A stretch of DNA of 32,271 bases from an uncultured Pedosphaera sp. (GTDB taxonomy: Bacteria; Verrucomicrobiota; Verrucomicrobiia; Limisphaerales; Pedosphaeraceae): the NCBI GenBank assembly GCA_903918755.1, contig CAIXFN010000037.1:1-32271 (forward strand), written 5' to 3'. How positions within the stretch are numbered: position 1 is the stretch's first letter; each line of letters starts with the position of its first letter. Positions 3,701 to 15,220 of the stretch are shown in pieces. The position numbers were made by a program, and so were the translations under genes. The notes under the pieces are model-generated. The model saw only the letters and a program-made list of their open reading frames with translations, had not been told where the DNA came from and ran no database searches.

Positions 3701-3727
3701 TCTCTCCCTCGTGGCAGATGCCGAAAA

Positions 3728-3819
3728 TCAGCCCCAAAGGGGCGCCCTAAGACAGCCCGGGGCATCGCCCCGGGAACCGCGGCCTCTTTGATTTCGAGCC
3801 CTAAATGGGCGACCCAATC
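3728..3819 (+). repeat. Structured intergenic repeat, copy 1
   Basis: First of four copies of a ~93-bp repeat, all in the same orientation. It holds three hairpins: GCCCC-AAA-GGGGC (3731-3743), CCCGGGGCATCGCCCCGGG (3756-3774; 7-bp stem, CATCG loop) and GCCC-TAAAT-GGGC (3798-3810). It lies between two converging genes. The rest of the gap (3820-3960) shows nothing recognisable. No T-run follows the hairpins, so it is not a standard intrinsic terminator. Confidence 0.85.
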
Positions 3820-3960
3820 GCTCACCCCTCCATCTCCTTGTAACAGCTCTGACATTTCGTTTTCCACAATTTCCGGCCCCCAAATTCAGTCACGGAAAAC
3901 CACGGAATTTTAGCCTCCAAGATACGCAACATTCGCAAAATGGAAAATTCCGGGTGCGCT

Positions 3961-5505
3961 TCAGGGCTGGCGCACGACCCGATAATATTTCTGCTGCCCA
4001 CCGGCCCCCGGGGAATCAATCACCGTGGCCGCGCTGTTCGTGGCGGTCAGGCAGGCCACGTTCACGCCCGCGGCCCAAGACTGGTTCAGATTCGTTTTGG
4101 CTTCGACACAATAAGTGACACCGGGCACCGAGTTCCAGGCGATCCGGATGGTGCCCCCAACCAGGGTGATGCTCGCAATGATGGGCAATTCGGCGCGGAC
4201 GAAATAAATGTCCTCCTCGCCGTTAAAAGTCGCCGGGTAAGCAATGCCGGCGCCCTCGTTGAGCGATACCATGGCCAGGTAATCCCCGATTTTCTCCTGC
4301 TGCGGATAGCCCAAGGAATGATCGAATTGCGGGGTGAGCGGGCGGTTCGGCGCCCAGGTCAATCCACCGTCATCCGACCACGAGTAATAAAGCGCGGAAA
4401 GGGAGTTATCCGCGCTCTGACGGGTGTCAAACCAACAGGCGTCAACCCGGCCATTGGGCGCCACGGATAAAGTCCCAAACCAATGGGCGGCATTCTGGGT
4501 CGCCGCATCGTCATTGATTCGCAAAGGTGCGCTCCAGGTCTGACCGCCATTGGTGCTGCGGCTGAACATGACATTCACGATATTTCCCGGGTCGTTGGTC
4601 ACCGAGCACAGAACGTAGACGTAACCGCGCGTCGCCCGGCTCGAATGGTCCACCGCCACCCAGGCCTGCCCCAGCAGTCCGCCCGGATTAATGCCGGAAA
4701 CCCCGATGACCGGCGGGCCGCCCAGGTCCACCAGGGTGCTGACGTCCATGGTGGGGATCGCATTCCGATTCGTTGCGTCGCTGGACCGGTTGAGCCAGAA
4801 GGGCTCGATATCGATTGCCGTGCCAAAGTTATAGACCTCCCCATTGGGTCCGATGGCGATCGTGCCCCAATACGGCAGGTGGGGCAGGCCGATGGCCGGC
4901 ATCCAATCTTTGCCCCCGTCCGTCGAACGGGTAAAGATCTGGTTTTGATTATTGTAAACATTGAAGAAGGGACTCCAGACCAGATAAATGTTCCCGCGGC
5001 CGGGGCCGCTCGTGGTGTCGATGGCCATCCACTCCTTGTCACCCCCCAATGCCGGGCCAACGGGCAGCCACGTGGCGCCCCCATTCGTGGACCGCAGCAA
5101 ATCGCATGCGAAGGTGTTCGCATTGGAGATTCCCAGGTAATAAAACACGCCGTCGGCGTCGCTGGCCAGGACCGGATCACTGCGGAAAGTTCCCGCCTCC
5201 AGAATGCCGGGAAAGGTCCAGTTCAACCCGCCATTGGTGGTGTAGGCCACGCCGGATTGCCGGAAGCTACTGTTGGTCGTGTCGAATTGACGCCAGCCGA
5301 TTGCCAGCCGGTTGGGGTTGGTGGGATCAACGCACATGGAAGGCTCATTGGCGGCGTCTCCCGGGATGTTTTGGCCGGCGGCGTTGACATTCACCTGGTA
5401 ACTGATGCCATATGGGCTGCGGATGGTCACCGCCCGCAAAACTCCGCCCAGGCCGGTGGAAACGATCAGCAGGAACGCCAGCCGCCGGGAATAAACATTT
5501 TTCAT
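3961..5505 (-). CDS. Secreted BNR-repeat (sialidase-fold) protein
   Basis: A 514-residue exported protein with a signal peptide (about residues 1-25: basic start, then LAFLLIVSTGLGGVLRA). The body is a six-bladed-propeller-type sequence with at least five BNR/Asp-box motifs: TTNGGLNW, STNGGATW, STDGGKDW, STNGGQTW and SDDGGLTW. The last ~85 residues (from about 430) form a small beta-sandwich-like module with YCVEAKTNLNQSW and KYYRVVRQP, a tail common on secreted verrucomicrobial proteins. I do not see a convincing set of sialidase catalytic residues (the Arg triad and the FRIP box), so it should not be called a sialidase on Asp boxes alone; a binding or other glycan role is equally possible. 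It stands alone, flanked on both sides by repeat copies. Confidence 0.8.
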   Translation of the reverse strand: MKNVYSRRLAFLLIVSTGLGGVLRAVTIRSPYGISYQVNVNAAGQNIPGDAANEPSMCVDPTNPNRLAIGWRQFDTTNSSFRQSGVAYTTNGGLNWTFPGILEAGTFRSDPVLASDADGVFYYLGISNANTFACDLLRSTNGGATWLPVGPALGGDKEWMAIDTTSGPGRGNIYLVWSPFFNVYNNQNQIFTRSTDGGKDWMPAIGLPHLPYWGTIAIGPNGEVYNFGTAIDIEPFWLNRSSDATNRNAIPTMDVSTLVDLGGPPVIGVSGINPGGLLGQAWVAVDHSSRATRGYVYVLCSVTNDPGNIVNVMFSRSTNGGQTWSAPLRINDDAATQNAAHWFGTLSVAPNGRVDACWFDTRQSADNSLSALYYSWSDDGGLTWAPNRPLTPQFDHSLGYPQQEKIGDYLAMVSLNEGAGIAYPATFNGEEDIYFVRAELPIIASITLVGGTIRIAWNSVPGVTYCVEAKTNLNQSWAAGVNVACLTATNSAATVIDSPGAGGQQKYYRVVRQP

Positions 5506-5790
5506 GAAATCAAGCTACAATTGATTGAGCCGAGGATCATTGCGCAACGCCCGGAGTGAAGCGCGCCGCGGAAGTTTCATCACCTCACCGTAGCACACTT
5601 TTCCCGACGGGCAATCGATTATGCCGGTTACCCCCAAAGTTGCCCCGCCCGCTTCCACCTCAATAATTGTAGGAGCCGACGTGAGGAGGCTGTGGCATTG
5701 CGTTTCTCCTTATTCCGGATCATCGAAAAAACTCCCAAAACGCAAAAGCAAAACCCACCAACTCGAAATCTCTCCCCTGAAACAAACGCA
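5506..5790. other. Intergenic region upstream of the BNR gene
   Basis: Gene-free DNA between the BNR-gene start and repeat copy 2. The only notable word is GTAGGAGCCGACGTGAGGAG near 5669-5688, which looks like part of another dispersed element. No hairpin followed by a T-run and no clear promoter pair was found. Confidence 0.35.
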
Positions 5791-5884
5791 AATCAGCCCC
5801 AAAGGGGCGAAATTCCTCAGCCCAGGACATCGCCCCGGGAACCGCGGCCTCTTTGATTTCGAGCCCTGAATGGGCGACACAATC
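5791..5884 (+). repeat. Structured intergenic repeat, copy 2
   Basis: Second copy of the ~93-bp repeat. Hairpin 1 is GCCCC-AAA-GGGGC (5796-5808). Hairpin 2 is weakened (CCCAGGA-CATCG-CCCCGGG, 5821-5839). Hairpin 3 is GCCC-TGAAT-GGGC (5863-5875). The segment between hairpins 2 and 3 (CGCGGCCTCTTTGATTTCGA) is identical to copy 1. It sits between the M28 stop and the start of the BNR gene. Confidence 0.85.
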
Positions 5885-5915
5885 CTACATCGCACTCAGC
5901 GCCACCCGGCACCAC

Positions 5916-7397
5916 CTATCTCCCGCCCGCCTCGCCCGCGGCAACGGGCAAGGTTCCTGGATTAGCGATCGGCTGCGCGTTGACGTAGGCCGAGACCGGG
6001 CTTTCATGACCGGTCGTGTCCACCGCTTTCACGCCGAAAACCAGCTGGTCGATGGGCGTGTTCTTCAGGACAAATTCGCGGACATTCCCCACCCAGATTT
6101 CGCGCTCCCAATCGGGCGCGGTCGTAGCGCGAACCACCACTATGAAGCCGGCCAGATCCGGCTCCGAATCGGGTTGTTCCCAACGCAAGACGGCGTCGTA
6201 ACCCTCGCCGCGCGTCAAGCCCGGCCGGGAACGGGGCGACCCGGTTGGGCCGGTTCCCGTGGCCGGAGTTGGGGTTGAGTTGCGATTGTTGGTGCTGGCC
6301 CGCGTGCCGGATCGGCTCGTCACCGGCGGCCGGGGGGCAAGGGCGAGCGCCGCGGCCGCGGCGGCATTCAGACGGATCACTTTGGCGGCATAACTCACCG
6401 AGGCGTTGGTGAAGGTGTCGGTGGGTGAGTGTTGGTTGGCGAAATTTTCCGCGGCAGTGGTGAAACGCACGCCCGGGTAGCCTTCCTGATTAAACGCCGT
6501 ATGGTCACCGCCCCGGCCGAACCGGTCGTAGCGGAAAATCATATCCACGGTCAGTTCGGGATAGTACCGGGTGCCAATCGACCGCACGAAACGCGCGAGC
6601 TGGCGGGAGGGCGAGTCATCCGGGTCCTCGGAAAAGACCAACACGTGATGATTATCCGTCCGCCCATTGCCGGCGGTATCGTTGCCGATAATGTCGTTAT
6701 TCAGGACTGCTTCGATCTCCTGGCCCTGGTTTTTGAGTCGTTTGGCCAGGGCCTGGGCGCCGACCAATCCCTGCTCCTCGCCGGCGAAAGCCACGAAGAC
6801 CAGGGTGGCGTCAAACTCATACTGGCTCATGACGCGGGCGCATTCCAGGGCGCAGGCCGTTCCGCTGGCGTCGTCGCTCACGCCGGGCGCAAATAATTCG
6901 GCGGCTTTTTCCGGTTGCTCCCGCAGGCCCGCGGCGTCCTTAAGATTCAGGGAATCATAATGACCACTGACCAGGATCCAGCGCGCTTTGGCCTGCGCTT
7001 GCTTCCCGGGGAGAATCGCCACGACATTGCGCAGCTCGACGTCCTTCCAAATCCGGCCCGCCTTGGGAATCTGATGGGTGTCAAAACTCACTTCGAGGCG
7101 CGGACTGTAGCTTTGGAACTGCTCCCGAATCCACTGCCGGGCGACCCCGATACCGCGATTGGTCTGCGCGGGATTCGACAACGTATTACGCGTCTCGAAT
7201 TTCTCCAAAGCACGCAGGGTGGCCGCAATGCGTTCCTCGGAAATTTCGCCCACGATCTTTTGAATGGCGGGATCAAGTCGCTGCACGGGCTGCGGCGCGT
7301 CCACCGTCGGCGGAATCTGCGCGGACGCGCTCGCCATACGGAAAAGGATCAACATCGCCCATCCAAATCCCCTGGACTTTCGCAGCACGTTCAGCAT
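5916..7397 (-). CDS. M28-family zinc aminopeptidase, secreted
   Basis: A zinc peptidase of the M28 (aminopeptidase Y/S) family, probably exported. The ligand motifs come in family order: GHYDSL (His), PGVSDDASGTA (bridging Asp), FAGEEQGLVGA (Glu catalytic base and ligand), NNDIIGND (Asp) and GRGGDHTAFNQEGYPG (His). A Ser/Thr/Pro-rich linker (about 100 residues before the end) leads to a fibronectin-III-like tail with YDAVLRWEQPDSEPDLAGF. I prefer the ATG at 7397 over one at 7460: it places a basic stretch (MLNVLRKSRG) and hydrophobic core at the N-terminus, ending near ASAQ, a plausible signal cleavage site. It would release N-terminal residues from peptides outside the cytoplasm. It stands alone between repeat copies 2 and 3. 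Confidence 0.87.
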   Translation of the reverse strand: MLNVLRKSRGFGWAMLILFRMASASAQIPPTVDAPQPVQRLDPAIQKIVGEISEERIAATLRALEKFETRNTLSNPAQTNRGIGVARQWIREQFQSYSPRLEVSFDTHQIPKAGRIWKDVELRNVVAILPGKQAQAKARWILVSGHYDSLNLKDAAGLREQPEKAAELFAPGVSDDASGTACALECARVMSQYEFDATLVFVAFAGEEQGLVGAQALAKRLKNQGQEIEAVLNNDIIGNDTAGNGRTDNHHVLVFSEDPDDSPSRQLARFVRSIGTRYYPELTVDMIFRYDRFGRGGDHTAFNQEGYPGVRFTTAAENFANQHSPTDTFTNASVSYAAKVIRLNAAAAAALALAPRPPVTSRSGTRASTNNRNSTPTPATGTGPTGSPRSRPGLTRGEGYDAVLRWEQPDSEPDLAGFIVVVRATTAPDWEREIWVGNVREFVLKNTPIDQLVFGVKAVDTTGHESPVSAYVNAQPIANPGTLPVAAGEAGGR

Positions 7398-7480
7398 GCC
7401 AAGGCTATAGCCCCGACATGGTGATGCGGCAATCACTTTCCGGTGGTGCCCAAGTTGCATTAAGTGTCCAGAATCCCACG

Positions 7481-7578
7481 CAAATCAGCCCCAACGGGGC
7501 ACCCTAAGACAGCCCGGGGCATCGCCTCGGGGGAACCGCGCCTCTTTTAATTCCAAGCCCTGAATGGGCGACCCAATC
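7481..7578 (+). repeat. Structured intergenic repeat, copy 3
   Basis: Third copy. Hairpin 1 is GCCCC-AAC-GGGGC (7488-7500). Hairpin 2 is partly broken by an extra base (CCCGGGG-CATCG-CCTCGGGG, from 7513). Hairpin 3 is GCCC-TGAAT-GGGC (7557-7569). It lies between the curA-like stop and the M28 start. Just upstream, 7459-7472 (ATTAAGTGTCCAGA) resembles the 23-bp direct repeat found near 13.8 and 14.0 kb on the other strand. Confidence 0.82.
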
Positions 7579-7644
7579 TCACGCACCAATCCACCTCGAA
7601 CTAACGTCCATTCAAAATTTTCGTCGGACTCCCGCCCACCCAAC

Positions 7645-8640
7645 TCACCCCACCTTGACCACCATTTTCCCTCGATTCTTCCCCTCAAAAAGGCCGAGAA
7701 AAGCCCCCACCGCCTGGTCAATTCCGACCACCACCGTTTCGTGATTCTTGACTTTGCCGGCGCGCAAATAGCCGCCCACTTCCTTTTCAAACTCCGCCTG
7801 CCTGTGCAGCCAGTCACCCACAATCATGCCCTTCATGGTCAGCCGTTTGGTGGTGACGTTGAACAGGTTGGCCGGGCCGGGCTTCGGCTGGGCTTCGTTA
7901 TAGCTCGATATGCCGCCACAGGCGATGATCCGGCCATTCACCCGCAACGCCGCCAGCGCCGCTTCCAGCGATTCACCGCCCACATTGTCGTAATAAACAT
8001 CAATCCCGTCCGGCACCAGCGCCGTCAGTTGTTCGCGCGTGGAACCGGTCTTGTAATTGAAGGCAATATCATACCCACATTCCTCCTGGAGAAACTTCAC
8101 TTTCTCCGGCGAACCGGCCGAGCCAATTACTTTGCAGCCCCGCAGTTTGGCCAGTTGCCCGGCCATATTGCCGACCGCCCCAGCCGCCCCGGAAATGAAA
8201 ATGACATCCCCGGCTTTGACCTCCACGAGGTTCAATCCCGCCCAGGCGGTCATGCCCGTCATGCCCAGCGCCCCCAAATAAATCGAGAGCGACGAAACCT
8301 CACGAGGGACGGGGCGCAGTTCTTGCGGCGAAGCGATGCAATATTCCCGCCACCCGAACATGGAAGTGACGGTGTCGCCCGGTTTGAATTCCTTCGCACG
8401 CGACTCCACGACTTCACCCACGGCACCGCCCGTCATCGCTTTGCCCAGTTCGAACGGGGGCACATACGATTTTCCCTCTTTCATGCGGCCGCGCATGTAC
8501 GGGTCCACTGAAATAAACCGATTCCGAACCAACACCTGCTGGTCGGACAACGGCGGCAGCTCCGTCTGCGCCAGCGTAAAGTTGGCAGCGGTCGGCATCC
8601 CGTTGGGACGGGACACGAGTCGAATTTCGCGATTGGTCAT
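7645..8640 (-). CDS. CurA-like NADPH-dependent oxidoreductase (MDR family)
   Basis: A 331-residue zinc-independent medium-chain reductase of the leukotriene-B4-dehydrogenase / CurA group, which reduces alpha,beta-unsaturated ketones and aldehydes with NADPH. Visible marks are the N-terminal SVDPYMRGRM (about 44-53), the GALGMTGMTAWAGL segment (about 123-136) and the nucleotide-binding loop SGAAGAVGNMAGQLA (about 150-164), followed by GSAGSPEKVKFL. The structural-zinc cysteine cluster of alcohol dehydrogenases is absent. Length is normal. It follows the carbinolamine dehydratase gene by 34 bp on the same strand and is probably co-transcribed. The exact substrate cannot be told from sequence; curcumin reductase activity should not be assumed. 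Confidence 0.88.
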   Translation of the reverse strand: MTNREIRLVSRPNGMPTAANFTLAQTELPPLSDQQVLVRNRFISVDPYMRGRMKEGKSYVPPFELGKAMTGGAVGEVVESRAKEFKPGDTVTSMFGWREYCIASPQELRPVPREVSSLSIYLGALGMTGMTAWAGLNLVEVKAGDVIFISGAAGAVGNMAGQLAKLRGCKVIGSAGSPEKVKFLQEECGYDIAFNYKTGSTREQLTALVPDGIDVYYDNVGGESLEAALAALRVNGRIIACGGISSYNEAQPKPGPANLFNVTTKRLTMKGMIVGDWLHRQAEFEKEVGGYLRAGKVKNHETVVVGIDQAVGAFLGLFEGKNRGKMVVKVG

Positions 8641-8674
8641 TTGGGTAAGAAGCTCGGAATGTTAACTGATTTCA

Positions 8675-8971
8675 TCAGCCTTTCACCACCGTGGCGAATT
8701 CCTCATCGCATTGTTCGGCGATGGTGAAATCGACCTCGGTGAGTCCGCCGGCATCATGCGTGGTGAGCACCAGCGTCACCTGATCGAACCGAATATCGAT
8801 GTCCGGATGATGATTGAGCTCTTGGGCGCGCTTCGCGATCTGGTTCACAAAAGCTATGCTCTTGAGAAAGCCGGCAAATTTATAGGTCCGGGTGATGCTC
8901 TTCAGGCGACGCGTCCATCCCGGCACCTCCTTCATCGCTTCGCTGATTTCGTCATGGGTCAATGTTGTCAT
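8675..8971 (-). CDS. phhB: 4a-hydroxytetrahydrobiopterin dehydratase
   Basis: A 98-residue pterin-4a-carbinolamine dehydratase. This cytosolic enzyme dehydrates the 4a-carbinolamine formed by pterin-dependent hydroxylases (or acts on related pterins, as in bacteria lacking a hydroxylase). The family signature is complete: ELNHHPDIDIRFDQVTLVLT with the catalytic His pair, then THDAGGLTEVDF. Length and fold match the family (about 95-105 residues). No phenylalanine hydroxylase gene is nearby; the downstream partner is the CurA-like reductase 34 bp away. A broken copy of its 3' end lies about 0.5 kb upstream, at 9189-9275. Very sure of the family; the physiological pterin is unknown. Confidence 0.93.
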   Translation of the reverse strand: MTTLTHDEISEAMKEVPGWTRRLKSITRTYKFAGFLKSIAFVNQIAKRAQELNHHPDIDIRFDQVTLVLTTHDAGGLTEVDFTIAEQCDEEFATVVKG

Positions 8972-9040
8972 AATTTTTGCTCAATGTTTTTTTCCATCCC
9001 GATCCGGGACCAGGAGTCGTAACTCTTGATTGTCACTGGC

Positions 9041-9134
9041 CCATCAGCCCTAAAGGGGCGCCCTACTACAGCCCAGGGCATCGCCCTGGGAACCAACGCC
9101 ACATTGTTTCCAAGCCCTGAATGGGCAACCCAAA
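9041..9134 (+). repeat. Structured intergenic repeat, copy 4 (compensatory change)
   Basis: Fourth and most diverged copy. Hairpin 2 is CCCAGGG-CATCG-CCCTGGG (9072-9090): relative to copy 1, a G-to-A change in the left arm is matched by a C-to-T change in the right arm, keeping all seven pairs. Hairpin 1 is GCCCT-AAA-GGGGC (9047-9059, one U-G pair) and hairpin 3 is GCCC-TGAAT-GGGC (9114-9126). It lies in the 320-bp gap between the dehydratase start and the PfpI-family stop. Confidence 0.83.
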
Positions 9135-9188: not shown

Positions 9189-9275
9189 TCACTCCTTCAC
9201 CACGGCGGCAAATTCCCCCCTCGCATTGCCCAACGACCGTGAAATCGGCCTCGGTGAAACCATCCGCATTTTTCC
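9189..9275 (-). pseudogene. Decayed 3' fragment of a second carbinolamine dehydratase gene
   Basis: Read on the minus strand, this stretch encodes DGFTEADFTVVGQCE and then, after a one-base frame change, EFAAVVKE followed by TGA. The intact gene at 8675-8971 ends GGLTEVDFTIAEQCDEEFATVVKG. The DNA can be aligned over about 80 bp, including the stop, with roughly three quarters of bases the same. Only the last ~24 codons remain, and upstream sequence shows no further similarity. It lies directly after the stop of the PfpI-family gene. It is best read as the remnant of a duplicated or horizontally acquired paralog. Confidence 0.7.
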
Positions 9276-9291
9276 GCTCCCACCATTGATC

Positions 9292-9984
9292 TCAACGCCG
9301 ATGTTCCTGCCTCAACATTTTCACCAAAACTCTGGCCGCCTCGGCCGAAGACGCGGGGTTTTGCCCGGTGATTAGCAACCCGTCGGTTTGCACATAAACT
9401 CCCCAATCCGACCCCTTACTGTAAATCCCGCCCGCTTTCTTGAGCTCATCCTCCAGCATAAGCGGCACCACCTTCGTCAGCTTCACCCCCGCCTCCTCGG
9501 TATCCGAAAAACCGGTCACCCGCTTCCCCGCAATCAACGCCTCGCCATTGGGCAATTTAACCTTCAGCAACGCGCACGGGGCATGACACACCAGAGCCAT
9601 GGGCTTCCCCTGCTGCGAAAAGGTGGCGAGCAAAGCAATCGAATTCGGATCGTTTACCAGATCCCACAGCGGACCGTGTCCGCCCGGATAAAACACTGCG
9701 TCATAATCGGACGCCTTAACGTCGCTCAATTTTAAAGTCTTCGCGAGCTTTTGCTGCAGCATTACATCCTTGTCAAACCGGTGCGTGAACTCCGTTTGCG
9801 CCCCCACCTCCAAGCTCTTGGGATCAATCGGCGGTTGACCGCCCTTGGGCGAAGCCAGCGTGATTTTGGCTCCGGCATCCGCCAGCTCATAATACGGCGC
9901 CGCAAACTCCTCCAACCAGAAACCAGTTTTCTTGCCGGTATCCCCCAGTTCGCTGTGCGAGGTCAAAACAATCAAGATCTTCAT
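9292..9984 (-). CDS. DJ-1/PfpI family protein (type 1 glutamine amidotransferase-like)
   Basis: About 230 residues from the preferred ATG at 9984 (MKILIVLTSHSELGDTGKKT); an in-frame ATG at 10002 would add six residues. The fold marks are AVFYPGGHGPLWDL (about 97-110) and the nucleophile elbow ALVCHAPCALL, with Cys near 133 followed by His near 134. An early Glu pair (WLEEFAAPYYEL, about 24-35) supplies the conserved acid. This matches the Hsp31/YajL-like branch, members of which act as glutathione-independent glyoxalases, deglycases or chaperones. The role here is not fixed by sequence. It is cytosolic, stands alone and is followed by the dehydratase remnant. Confidence 0.87.
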   Translation of the reverse strand: MKILIVLTSHSELGDTGKKTGFWLEEFAAPYYELADAGAKITLASPKGGQPPIDPKSLEVGAQTEFTHRFDKDVMLQQKLAKTLKLSDVKASDYDAVFYPGGHGPLWDLVNDPNSIALLATFSQQGKPMALVCHAPCALLKVKLPNGEALIAGKRVTGFSDTEEAGVKLTKVVPLMLEDELKKAGGIYSKGSDWGVYVQTDGLLITGQNPASSAEAARVLVKMLRQEHRR

Positions 9985-10002
9985 GATAATGGGCGCTGGC
10001 AT

Positions 10003-10160
10003 ATGGTATTTGGTTTAGGTGAGAGGTTCATCGCCCACGTTCTACGCAGTTGGCCACGATGCAAATTCAGCAGACTCCGTCCCGGTCGCGCCCCCGCGGA
10101 CGTAAATGAGGCAAGAGCCGGTCGCGGCAAACGTGTGCGCTTTGCGGAGCGCAATTATTA
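10003..10160. other. Intergenic region between PfpI-family gene and minisatellite
   Basis: No gene is supported. Overlapping open frames on both strands run through this region into the minisatellite and owe their length to its lack of stop codons. No terminator or clear promoter pair seen. Confidence 0.35.
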
Positions 10161-10272
10161 GCGTCGGCGTTGGAATCGGCGTCGGCGTTGGAATCGGCGT
10201 CGGCGCTGGAATCGGCGTCGGCGCTGGAATCGGCGTCGGCGCTGGCGTTGGCGTTGGCGTTGGAATTGGCAT
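10161..10272 (+). repeat. 18-bp minisatellite (GGCGTC/GGCGTT based)
   Basis: About five tandem copies of an 18-bp unit (GCGTCGGCGTTGGAATCG and close variants) start at 10161, 10179, 10197, 10215 and 10233, then decay into 6-bp GGCGTT and GGAATTGGCATTGGC units. Because the unit is a multiple of three, all frames stay open and give low-complexity peptides (VGVGIG on plus, PTPTPIPA or ADADSN on minus). These are unlikely to be translated. A short hairpin, GGGGG-TTG-CCCCC, follows at 10314-10326. The remaining DNA to 10451 shows nothing else. Confidence 0.85.
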
Positions 10273-10451
10273 TGGCAATGTCACCATAGAAGATGAACCG
10301 CGTCCGTGCCACGGGGGGTTGCCCCCATCGCTTTGAAGAACGGCGGGTCCATCATCCCAAACCGTAAGACAACCAGTAATTGTCACCGGTCACTATTAAT
10401 TGTCGCCAGCCGAGGACGTAGACCTTCACCCAACGCGCCCATTTTTCATCG

Positions 10452-13053: not shown

Positions 13054-13474
13054 CAAAGGGGTCAAACCATAGTTTGGTTCGCGAACGACCAGCGGTCGTC
13101 CTGATCGAGCATCAATGGTTTTGTTTTCTTTGCTGGAAACCCTTTGTGGATAAACTCTATTCGTGTGCCCCGCAACACGTTACCCACCAAATCACACGAA
13201 ATTCCTACGGTAGCAATTCAAACCATCCCAACTCGTGCTAAAAGTGTCAGGGGAGCCCGTCCGCCAAAGGGGTCAAAGCATAGTATGGTTCGCAAACGAC
13301 CAGCGGTTTTCATAATCGAGAGTCCATGATTTGGTGTTCTGACCTCAAAACCCTTTTTGAATGAATTCTATTTGCTTGCCGTGCAACAGGTTACCAACGA
13401 AATGCCGGTTAATTCCTACCGCAGCAATTCAAACCATCCCAACTCGTGCTAAAAGTGTCAGGGGAGCCCGTCCG
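13054..13474 (+). repeat. 211-bp tandem duplication (two copies)
   Basis: Copy A is 13054-13263 and copy B 13265-13474. Both begin CAAAGGGGTCAAA and end GTGTCAGGGGAGCCCGTCCG. The last 52 bp are identical (13212-13263 and 13423-13474); the first part is clearly alignable but diverged. Copy A begins with an inverted repeat AACCA-TAGTT-TGGTT and the palindrome GTTCGCGAAC, both partly lost in copy B. No frame spans it that looks coding. It lies upstream of the sigma fusion gene. It probably is a non-autonomous mobile or repeat-family unit; no transposase is present in the window. Confidence 0.85.
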
Positions 13475-13797: not shown

Positions 13798-13820
13798 TCC
13801 GGACACTTAATCCAGTTTCG
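13798..13820 (-). repeat. 23-bp direct repeat, copy 1
   Basis: An exact 23-bp word (plus strand begins TCCGGACACTTAATCCAG) recurs at 13975-13997 in the same orientation, 177 bp away. Read on minus it contains ATTAAGTGTCCGGA, similar to ATTAAGTGTCCAGA at 7459-7472 on plus. It marks one edge of a ~177-bp element. Confidence 0.8.
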
Positions 13821-13974: not shown

Positions 13975-13997
13975 TCCGGACACTTAATCCAGTTTCG
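13975..13997 (-). repeat. 23-bp direct repeat, copy 2
   Basis: Second exact copy of the 23-bp word, lying 69 bp after the SGNH gene stop on the minus strand. The DNA between the two copies (13821-13974) has no gene. The direct-repeat pair could be the junctions of two tandem element copies or the trace of an insertion. Confidence 0.8.
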
Positions 13998-14065: not shown

Positions 14066-15220
14066 CTATTTCTCCAACCACTGGCGGAAGGCGGGGCTGG
14101 CGGTGGTGCGTTGGGCGAGGAGCGCGTAGCCGGCGGTGAGGGGGTGGCTGGCGTCGGCGTAGAGTTCGGACGGCAAGGTTTCGGGCGCCAAGTGCGGAAC
14201 GTTTTGCGCGGAGAGCCAGGCGGCGATGCCGTCCCGCGCTTGCACGTACCCCGGCCGGCTTTCGGGGGCGACCAGGTGTTCGTTGAACGGTCCCAACACG
14301 ACGAAGACATCGTTCCCGCGCGCACGCAAACGCGCCACCAACCGCTGGAAGGCCGCCCATTGCAGGGAGGCGGATAGATCCACCCACTCAAATTGCGCGG
14401 GGCCGCCGGTCTTGGTCCAGGACTGGTGGCGCGGGCTTTGCGGGCCGCGTTCCGGGTCGGTCGCCGGCGCGGTGGGGACGGCCAGGCGGATTTGCGCCAG
14501 CGGATTTTTGTAACTGTTCAGGTACTTTGGCGGGTCCTCCGCATCGCTGGCGAGGGTCCAGGTGAGGATGCTCTTCTGGTCAAAGTAGGCGTTTTGGAGA
14601 TGATTGACCCAGGCAATCAGGCCGAAGTTGCGTTCCATCAACACCCCGATCCGCTCGTTGGCGTCCGCCCGGTAACAGGGAATGCGGGGGGAAAATTGCG
14701 GGACCAGCCGGGCGTGGTTGAATTTCTCCTCCTTGGTGGCGCTCAAGTCCGCCTTGGGACTGCTCAACCAGAGGACATTACAATGGAGCAGGACTTTCCG
14801 GTTGTGCAAGGCGCCCCCGTAATCCTCCACCAAACCGCCCAACGCCAGCGGGAAAAGACCATTCACTCCGCCATTGATAAAGCGATCGCCACCGCCGGCC
14901 TCCTGATTCATGAAATGGGACCACGTGCCGTCGGGCATGACATACTCCCCCCAGACCACGGAATCGCCGAGCATGACAATATTGCGCGGACCGGCGGCTT
15001 CGTTCAGGCGGCGTTGCCAAAGCCAATAGTCTTTGCTCAAGGCATAGGGAATCCGGTAATCCGGGCCGGTTTCGAAGCGCTCGACGCGCGGCCAGAGCCG
15101 GGGAATGAGCAGCGCCGCCAGGCCGATCAACAGCACCGCGATCACCCATTGCCGGCCATTGAGGCGAACCTCATTAACCATGGGCGTAACCGGAAGCGCG
15201 GGTGGCGGGGTGGGGTTCAT
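14066..15220 (-). CDS. Membrane-anchored SGNH/GDSL-like protein, partner of the MBOAT acyltransferase
   Basis: A 384-residue protein from the ATG at 15220, which lies one base after the MBOAT stop and so is probably coupled to it. One membrane helix (about 26-43) anchors it; the rest is presumably periplasmic. SGNH marks are present: the Ser block IVMLGDSVVWGEY (Gly85-Asp86-Ser87), a Gly/Asn block (INGGVNGLFPLALGG) and the C-terminal DASHPLTAGY with Asp356 and His359. This is the arrangement of AlgJ/AlgX- or DltD-like proteins that accept acyl groups from an MBOAT channel and put them on an exported polymer. The polymer is not identifiable here. An upstream ATG at 15250 would lie inside the MBOAT gene and is disfavoured. 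Confidence 0.82.
   Translation of the reverse strand: MNPTPPPALPVTPMVNEVRLNGRQWVIAVLLIGLAALLIPRLWPRVERFETGPDYRIPYALSKDYWLWQRRLNEAAGPRNIVMLGDSVVWGEYVMPDGTWSHFMNQEAGGGDRFINGGVNGLFPLALGGLVEDYGGALHNRKVLLHCNVLWLSSPKADLSATKEEKFNHARLVPQFSPRIPCYRADANERIGVLMERNFGLIAWVNHLQNAYFDQKSILTWTLASDAEDPPKYLNSYKNPLAQIRLAVPTAPATDPERGPQSPRHQSWTKTGGPAQFEWVDLSASLQWAAFQRLVARLRARGNDVFVVLGPFNEHLVAPESRPGYVQARDGIAAWLSAQNVPHLAPETLPSELYADASHPLTAGYALLAQRTTASPAFRQWLEK

What the first reader, a model, noticed from the sequence alone, without database searches (positions are those of the whole stretch)
3728..9134. Four-copy intergenic repeat with three hairpins and a compensatory base-pair change
Copies at 3728-3819, 5791-5884, 7481-7578 and 9041-9134 share the same orientation, order and spacing of three hairpins. 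The middle stem is CCCGGGG/CCCCGGG in copy 1 and CCCAGGG/CCCTGGG in copy 4, so a change in one arm is matched in the other. The CATCG loop is constant in all four. Each copy sits at a border between transcription units in this 5.4-kb stretch and none lies inside the phhB-curA pair. That fits a conserved structure (RNA element, transcription boundary, or a small mobile element needing hairpins) better than random decay. Copies 2 and 3 have damaged middle stems, so not all may be active.
Basis: partly seen in the sequence, partly recalled or inferred. Interest (0 to 1): 0.65.

Follow-up and report, generated by a model that had tools for sequence, protein, structure and literature searches.

The report
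Transposase-linked triple-hairpin DNA repeat
The four repeats are copies of a roughly 90-letter DNA unit with three hairpins that often brackets a small single-strand-DNA transposase gene in several groups of bacteria, so a sequence catalogued as a mystery 'RNA' is probably a tiny mobile DNA element.

Summary
In detail: four same-strand copies, each with three hairpins, all between genes, with a real G-C to A-T compensatory change in the middle stem. Two of the four pass Rfam's threshold for RF01687 (Acido-Lenti-1 'sRNA'), which covers two of the three hairpins. The evidence points to mobile DNA rather than RNA. A covariance model trained on dispersed copies from other genomes finds all four copies. 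It also finds the unit beside Y1 HUH transposase genes: 149 of 175 counted hits in 80 named loci lie within 500 bp of the gene, mostly in inverted orientation, with density falling from 1.98 per kb to zero. Transposase and unit sequences co-diverge (Mantel r 0.66, 38 hand-picked loci). RF01687 copy density is higher where the transposase is present. Stem mismatches show no strand preference (22 G.T, 16 A.C). The transposases carry the signature of TnpA-Y1 subclass 1.2, published as having no REP-like repeats. Against this, 20 of 76 loci show no unit within 200 bp, no clean empty site was found, and this genome's gene may be damaged. I read this as a REPtron-like system with a new triple-hairpin substrate; movement itself is inferred.

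The parts
3730..3817 (+). copy 1: H1 3731-3743, H2 3756-3774, H3 3798-3810, tail GACCCAA
   Evidence: R1 hit 3725-3818, 53.0 bits; RF01687 3774-3730 minus, 41 bits
5795..5882 (+). copy 2: H1 5796-5808, H2 5821-5839 (two A.C mismatches), H3 5863-5875
   Evidence: R1 hit 5790-5883, 45.7 bits; RF01687 33.6 bits, below cut-off
7487..7576 (+). copy 3: H1 7488-7500, H2 7513-7531 (one G.T; 2-nt insertion after H2), H3 7557-7569
   Evidence: R1 hit 7482-7577, 42.0 bits; RF01687 27.4 bits, below cut-off
9046..9133 (+). copy 4: H1 9047-9059 (one T.G), H2 9072-9090 (A-T in place of copy 1's G-C), H3 9114-9126
   Evidence: R1 hit 9041-9134, 48.9 bits; RF01687 9090-9046 minus, 40.4 bits
3140..3700 (+). neighbour gene, 186 aa, no Pfam match; ends 29 nt before copy 1; orthologue in same-genus genome G001 has no unit after it
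3961..5505 (-). neighbour gene, BNR-repeat protein; lies between copies 1 and 2
   Evidence: PF02012 29.0 bits; PF13088 below its cut-off
5916..7460 (-). neighbour gene, M28 peptidase; lies between copies 2 and 3
   Evidence: PF04389 106.2 bits
7645..8640 (-). neighbour gene, curA-like oxidoreductase (ADH_N_2); no unit between it and phhB
   Evidence: PF16884 141.7 bits
8675..8971 (-). neighbour gene, phhB (pterin-4a-carbinolamine dehydratase); orthologue in G001 has no unit on the copy-4 side (a 12.4-bit, E 0.083 match lies on the other side)
   Evidence: (PF01329 102.6 bits)
9292..10002 (-). neighbour gene, DJ-1/PfpI family; lies beyond copy 4
   Evidence: PF01965 58.1 bits

Best explanation
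The four copies are dispersed, non-autonomous copies of a triple-hairpin DNA unit (A-H1 - about 10 nt - AG-H2 - about 16-26 nt - H3 - short tail, GACAGAA in the relatives' consensus) that is, or was, the substrate of a small IS200-like Y1 HUH transposase (TnpA-Y1 subclass 1.2 type) coded elsewhere in the genome (contig C41, with sister genes on C110 and C28). Shown: the unit lies beside such genes, mostly in inverted orientation, in genomes labelled as several phyla; it co-diverges with them; it is denser in genomes that carry them; it has sharp edges and keeps its hairpins through compensatory changes without strand preference. Inferred: the enzyme binds the hairpins in single-stranded DNA, cleaves beside them and rejoins them elsewhere, as TnpA-REP does in vitro (and, from general knowledge, IS608 TnpA). 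H1 and H3 share one consensus module in the same orientation, so they may act as equivalent ends, with H2 as a further recognition hairpin. Rfam's Acido-Lenti-1 'sRNA' is then H2+H1 of this unit read on the other strand.
For: (1) R1, built from 44 dispersed copies in relatives, was run on 80 loci chosen by transposase protein. Of 175 hits with E<0.009, 149 lie within 500 bp of the gene; density by 500-bp bins 1.98, 0.23, 0.09, 0.05, 0.02, and 0 per kb beyond 2.5 kb; nearest upstream unit + in 41 of 49 loci, nearest downstream unit - in 46 of 53 (p 2e-6, 4e-8); of 76 loci with both flanks long enough, 40 have a unit within 200 bp on both sides, 56 on at least one. (2) In this genome the C41 gene has units at 14783(+), 15533(+), 15647(+) and an inverted one at 14887-14968; two weaker hits bracket the C28 gene. 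(3) Two long TnpA-Y1 loci of another type (C14, C40; NHFH and YVHLNP) have no hit at E<=0.01 in 33 kb. (4) Unit and transposase distances correlate: Mantel r 0.66, p 1e-4, 38 loci; upstream and downstream unit of one locus 72% alike, 53% between loci. (5) RF01687 density: median 4.6 per Mb in 25 genomes with a C41-like protein, 0.7 in 15 without, p 5e-5; one genome per family 19 vs 14, p 4e-4. (6) 12 of 18 pairs show changes on both sides; G.T 22 vs A.C 16 in 109 units, p 0.42. (7) Sharp edges; shared H1/H3 ends in three tandem cases.
Against: No empty site with intact flanks was found; the congeners held are diverged. 20 of 76 loci have no counted unit within 200 bp, among them the Lentisphaera locus, all three Bacteroidetes-type loci (L140, L170, L181) and one of two Chloroflexi loci (L137). 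R1 finds none at this genome's C110 gene, whose own three-hairpin repeats are seen by eye only. In 8 of 49 upstream and 7 of 53 downstream cases the nearest unit has the other orientation. Genome G025 has 17 RF01687 matches without a C41-like protein. The C41 gene may be damaged: its ATG is out of frame and the ORF reads from TTG. Units used for the covariation and mismatch counts were selected for good pairing. Training copies and test loci are separate, but genomes G002 and G010 supply both. Transcription was not testable.
Confidence: 0.85

Rival explanations
1. A small RNA or cis-regulatory RNA family (as Rfam files RF01687): hairpins are kept because the transcript folds.
For: Two of four copies exceed the Rfam cut-off; strong covariation; copy 2's two A.C mismatches would be G.U pairs on the Rfam strand (sequence; RF01687 33.6 bits).
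Against: Over 109 units the Rfam strand is not favoured (22 G.T vs 16 A.C read on the unit's + strand); the unit clusters beside transposases, mostly in inverted orientation; at three gene borders a same-genus relative has no confident unit.
Confidence: 0.07
2. Bidirectional transcription terminators or mRNA 3'-end stabilisers at gene borders (possibly a secondary use of a mobile repeat).
For: All four copies lie between genes; two of nine terminator-like matches fall in copies, one in copy 1 (minus strand), one in copy 3 (plus strand).
Against: Terminator-like matches equal the shuffled expectation (9 vs 8.6); no conserved T-tract after the unit; units cluster at transposases.
Confidence: 0.05
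3. Fossil only: a REP-like family spread earlier that now decays, with no active cognate transposase in this genome. This does not exclude the main explanation; it limits it to the past.
For: Two of the four middle stems carry mismatches; the C41 gene's ATG is out of frame; 34 R1 matches at E<=0.1 in 7.2 Mb (150 of 2766 candidates scored).
Against: HUH and Tyr are intact in the C41, C110 and C28 proteins; related genome G003 has 114 RF01687 matches, and the G003 copies read are near-identical in stems.
Confidence: 0.35
4. Bystander: the units are recombination debris or assembly-breaking repeats that accumulate near any mobile gene.
For: A dozen or so listed G003 matches lie within 350 bases of a contig start.
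Against: Orientation rule, distance gradient and co-divergence with this transposase; no hits at the C14 and C40 TnpA-Y1 loci. Other transposase families were not tested.
Confidence: 0.03

Closest known systems
Rfam RF01687 Acido-Lenti-1 RNA (Weinberg 2010, PMC2864571: two table passages seen)
   Same: Copies 1 and 4 pass its cut-off; H2+H1 with their linker; matches in genomes labelled Acidobacteria and Lentisphaera.
   Different: The unit is longer (adds H3), clusters beside a transposase and behaves as DNA; Rfam types it as an sRNA on the opposite strand.
TnpA-Y1 subclass 1.2 (Quentin 2018, PMC6006769: sections 12, 17, 18, 27 read and passages)
   Same: DH[IV]H, WQ, Y---Q--HH, about 148 aa; three such genes in this genome, all different.
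   Different: The paper lists REP 'no', generally without IS200-like terminal structures, mostly Cyanobacteria and Bacteroidetes; here most sampled genes (56 of 76) have a unit within 200 bp, in genomes labelled mainly Verrucomicrobia and Planctomycetes.
REP/REPtron (RAYT) systems (PMC8266576: passages; PMC3116915: listing only; PMC2817692: listing and a term search without hits)
   Same: Y1 transposase flanked by inverted palindromic repeats that are dispersed in the genome; each transposase with its own repeat family (as described in PMC6006769).
   Different: Three hairpins per unit; foot mostly ATAG, not GT[AG]G; protein fits the IS200 model better than the REP_Tyr_transpos model.
TIRYT/TIR systems (Di Nocera 2013, PMC3733652: section 16 read and passages)
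   Same: RAYT-like genes, some in Acidobacteria, flanked by inverted repeats, some of them repeated families.
   Different: Their TIR sequences are in figures not held, so identity could not be tested; no triple-hairpin rule in the section read, and 'Rfam' does not occur in the text.
IS200/IS605 (IS608, ISDra2)
   Same: Solved structures matched by sequence are IS200-type transposases (best 2fyx; also 2xm3, 2a6m 'ISHp608', 2vhg); single-strand hairpin ends (recalled); H1 and H3 in the same orientation.
   Different: Whole units flank the gene mostly in inverted orientation; non-autonomous copies outnumber the gene.

Membership tests
Rfam RF01687 | score at or above gathering cut-off 37 bits | tested here: met
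   met by 2 of 4 window copies (41.0, 40.4); copies 2 and 3 are below it (33.6, 27.4)
Rfam RF01687 | transcribed small RNA folding on the Rfam strand | tested here: inconclusive
   no mismatch bias toward that strand; transcription not testable
REP/REPtron | repeat flanks a Y1 HUH transposase gene and is dispersed in the genome | tested here: met
   20 of 76 loci without a unit within 200 bp
REP/REPtron | 5' GT[AG]G foot at the hairpin | tested here: not met
   foot of H2 in 44 units: ATAG 28, GTAG 7, TTAG 6, ACAG 2, CTAG 1; window ACAG, TCAG, ACAG, ACAG
REP/REPtron | single hairpin of about 20-40 nt | tested here: not met
   three hairpins, about 88-95 nt
TnpA-Y1 subclass 1.2 | motifs DH[VI]H, WQ and Y---Q--HH | tested here: met
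   Y---Q--HH 80 of 80 (HH partly selected by the search pattern), WQ 80 of 80, DH[VI]H 76 of 80; D-H-x-H, WQ and YxxxQxxHH in 17 of 17
TnpA-Y1 subclass 1.2 | no associated repeat structures (as published) | tested here: not met
   56 of 76 loci with a unit within 200 bp
TnpA-Y1 class 3 | Y----Q motif, W[TA], CnGA foot | tested here: not met
   motif is Y---Q--HH with WQ in 80 of 80
IS200/IS605 | left- and right-end hairpins in the same orientation around the transposase gene (recalled) | tested here: not met
   flanking units mostly inverted: + in 41 of 49 upstream, - in 46 of 53 downstream
TIRYT/TIR | RAYT-like gene between inverted repeats that form a repeated family | tested here: met
TIRYT/TIR | published TIR sequences and protein signatures | not testable with these tools
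   they are in figures and additional files not held

The most novel reading that the evidence does not exclude
Each 88-95-nt unit is itself a complete minimal single-strand-DNA transposon: H1 and H3, which share one consensus and orientation, serve as interchangeable left and right ends, H2 is a central recognition hairpin, and a whole class of transposases thought to lack repeats (subclass 1.2) works on it. An RNA family catalogued since 2010 would then be a mobile DNA family spread over several phyla.
Probability: 0.35. Interest if true: 0.75.

Novelty: new variant of a known kind. Interest (0 to 1): 0.6.

Why it matters
It offers a testable function for an orphan Rfam family that is still read as a possible regulatory ncRNA (a 2026 Tannerella paper, PMC13298647, one passage seen, suggests it may regulate protease genes), and a repeat substrate for a transposase subclass reported to have none. 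It also warns that covariation alone does not prove RNA: mobile DNA hairpins covary too.

Tried and rejected
Transcription terminator: not supported as main role. Sequence-only nhmmer from the four copies found close copies but few divergent families. Clean empty-site search: R1 finds no unit (E<=1) after the G001 orthologue of the 3140-3700 gene, and at the G001 phhB orthologue only a 12.4-bit match (E 0.083) on the side away from copy 4, but synteny differs; G003 has no congener held; in G004 a 72.5-bit unit lies past a stretch shared with G006, whose contig has none, but the flank diverges there. So presence differs, without an exact junction. A survey of Acidobacteria by taxon could not be run; replaced by 14 named genomes, chosen by me from the 80 loci for spread and partly because their loci had hits, so 14 of 14 with RF01687 is not an unbiased rate. 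Alignment A4 with this genome's copies was dropped because their 3-nt loop was misaligned against 4-nt loops; R1 uses 44 of its 64 rows. Of 196 rows, 175 were counted: 4 window rows and 17 rows with E 0.011-0.08 were left out. In one search, 4 of 80 loci were not evaluable on both sides. For one search I hand-picked 38 loci with a + unit upstream and a - unit downstream (one of L128's lies 471 bp off; L191 has a short flank); others with units on both sides were left out. One search kept 109 of 123 units, selected for pairing. For 'transposase present' means a C41 protein match at E<=1e-8; several of the 40 genomes are incomplete. Control genomes: RF01687 rang in 8 of 14 at E<=10, 1 of 14 at E<=0.01, 0 of 14 at E<=0.001, none over the cut-off.
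Full report
WHAT IS THERE. The window is one whole contig (C37) of a 7.19-Mb, 118-contig genome. Its relative G002, of the same family, has an RF01687 hit at the same place and score as the genome behind locus L166, labelled 'Verrucomicrobia bacterium Centralia_MAG_180', so I infer a verrucomicrobial genome. The four copies head the window's direct-repeat families, align over about 95 nt, lie on the + strand, and fall between six genes, five of which have Pfam matches. The compensatory G-C to A-T change between copies 1 and 4 is real.

RFAM LINK. cmscan puts copies 1 and 4 above the cut-off of RF01687, Acido-Lenti-1, on the minus strand. The Rfam match covers H2 and H1 only. In the whole genome RF01687 gives 83 matches at E<=10, 8 of them over the cut-off, with 150 of 1509 candidates scored. 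The paper that named it (PMC2864571, table passages) gives Acidobacteria and Lentisphaerae and no function there.

THE TRANSPOSASE. The genome has five Y1_Tnp genes. Three are short (C41, C110, C28; 153-162 aa) and carry D-H-x-H, WQ and Y-x-x-x-Q-x-x-H-H; two are long with NHFH and YVHLNP. The C41 gene is surrounded by the same triple-hairpin unit. The C110 gene is bracketed by a different sequence with the same three-hairpin plan (by eye; R1 does not detect it). Two weak R1 hits bracket the C28 gene. The two long genes have none at E<=0.01.

MODEL TEST. R1 was built from 44 dispersed units taken from relatives' RF01687 loci, none from this genome and none on a contig with a C41-like gene listed. 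It found all four window copies and 34 matches in this genome at E<=0.1, 150 of 2766 candidates scored. In 80 named loci, the best of 516 found by transposase protein, 175 hits with E<0.009 were counted; 149 lie within 500 bp of the gene, and density falls to zero beyond 2.5 kb. Nearest units are + upstream in 41 of 49 and - downstream in 46 of 53, which puts H3 next to the gene; 30 of 53 downstream units begin within 10 nt of the end of the matched coding stretch. Of 76 loci with both flanks long enough, 40 have units on both sides, 56 on at least one and 20 on neither. Bracketed loci carry labels Verrucomicrobia, Planctomycetes, Acidobacteria (L192, L173), Chloroflexi (L138) and Deltaproteobacteria (L145, L155, L176); the Lentisphaera locus (L142), the three Bacteroidetes-type loci (L140, L170, L181) and Roseiflexaceae L137 are among the 20 without. 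G002 and G010 therefore supply both training copies and test loci. The C41 protein is 73-79% identical to homologues in MAGs labelled Opitutaceae, Pirellula and Roseiflexaceae, which suggests horizontal transfer, with the caution that MAG labels can be wrong.

COGNATE PAIRS. Over 38 hand-picked loci, unit distance and transposase distance correlate (Mantel r 0.66, p 1e-4). The two units of one locus are 72% alike against 53% between loci, and the own partner is the best match in 22 of 38. Among 40 genomes of the order, RF01687 density is higher in the 25 with a C41-like protein than in the 15 without (median 4.6 vs 0.7 per Mb, p 5e-5; one genome per family p 4e-4). At most 115 candidates per genome were scored, genomes with the protein are somewhat larger (median 5.1 vs 4.1 Mb), and one without it (G025) has 17 matches. 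RF01687 occurs in 14 of 14 transposase genomes that I chose from the named loci, 12 of them over the cut-off, and in 0 of 14 control genomes at E<=0.001.

DNA OR RNA. In the 44 units 12 of 18 pairs have changes on both sides, above all 500 shuffles on every measure; the units were chosen for good pairing, so the percentage paired is not evidence. In 109 units there are 22 G.T and 16 A.C mismatches (p 0.42). A folded RNA would be expected to keep G.U on its own strand; the Rfam strand predicts an excess of A.C in this reading, which is not seen. Copy 2 alone goes that way (two A.C), copies 3 and 4 the other way (one G.T each).

ANATOMY. Conservation begins at the A before H1 and ends about seven bases after H3 (GACAGAA), with near-background flanks (92 units). 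The consensus of H1 with its tail equals that of H3 with its tail apart from undetermined positions, and in three cases an H3 serves as the next unit's H1 in tandem. Eight listed G024 and G016 places hold two RF01687 matches in inverted orientation about 130-160 nt apart (most read), like REP pairs. The foot of H2 is ATAG 28, GTAG 7, TTAG 6, ACAG 2 and CTAG 1 of 44, and ACAG or TCAG in the window, so the REP rule GT[AG]G is not met.

MECHANISM. Shown: linkage, orientation, co-divergence, density, hairpin maintenance, edges. Inferred: the Y1 enzyme, whose solved relatives by sequence are IS200-type transposases (2fyx, 2xm3, 2a6m 'ISHp608'), recognises the folded single strand and moves units. 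TnpA-REP enzymes bind and cleave single-stranded REP (PMC8266576, passages). Not shown: cleavage, excision, insertion, or activity of the C41 gene, whose ATG is out of frame with the ORF.

WHAT IS KNOWN. PMC6006769 (sections 12, 17, 18, 27) defines subclass 1.2 with the motifs found here and lists no REP. Its class 3 (Planctomycetes, Acidobacteria, Proteobacteria; about 600 structures in Solibacter usitatus) has a different Y motif. PMC3733652 (section 16) describes TIRYT genes flanked by TIRs, some in Acidobacteria, the nearest published idea; its TIR sequences could not be compared. I found no paper joining Acido-Lenti-1 to a transposase: 'Acido-Lenti-1' (3 papers; the passages with the term seen), 'RAYT'+'Rfam' (36 papers, 15 listed), 'TIRYT'/'tyrosine transposase' (24), 'RAYT'/'REPIN'/'Verrucomicrobi' (111, 25 listed), 'tnpAREP'+'Planctomycet' (1), RAYT with Bacteroidetes terms (2) and 'repetitive extragenic palindrom'+'Verrucomicrob' (4), in an open-access library only. 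A reported association of Acido-Lenti-1 with group II introns is recalled, not checked.

VERDICT. The repeat is real and conserved in structure. Best reading: a transposase-linked, triple-hairpin mobile DNA unit, a new variant of the REPtron/TIRYT kind.

Noticed in passing
window 13801-13815 and 13978-13992; genome-wide: GGACACTTAATCCAG occurs 81 times in the genome (reversed control 0), in places interleaved with other triple-hairpin units (L043); a partial reverse-complement match lies just before copy 3 (by eye). Nature unknown.
   Followed up: partly
window 9193-9290: A second, decayed piece resembling one end of the phhB gene lies beyond copy 4 (repeat D6).
   Followed up: no
L039 8860-13400 (contig C73), L043 11780-12280 (contig C82): Other repeat families in the same genome share the three-hairpin plan with different stems, some in tandem blocks.
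   Followed up: partly
L036 15023-15511 (contig C41): The family-A transposase ORF reads from TTG; the nearby ATG is out of frame, so the gene may be damaged or use a non-ATG start.
   Followed up: no
window 10143-10286 and 13054-13474: An 18-bp tandem repeat and two 210-nt direct copies 82% alike.
   Followed up: no
G003 contig ends: About a dozen listed RF01687 matches lie within 350 bases of a contig start, so the units may break assemblies.
   Followed up: no
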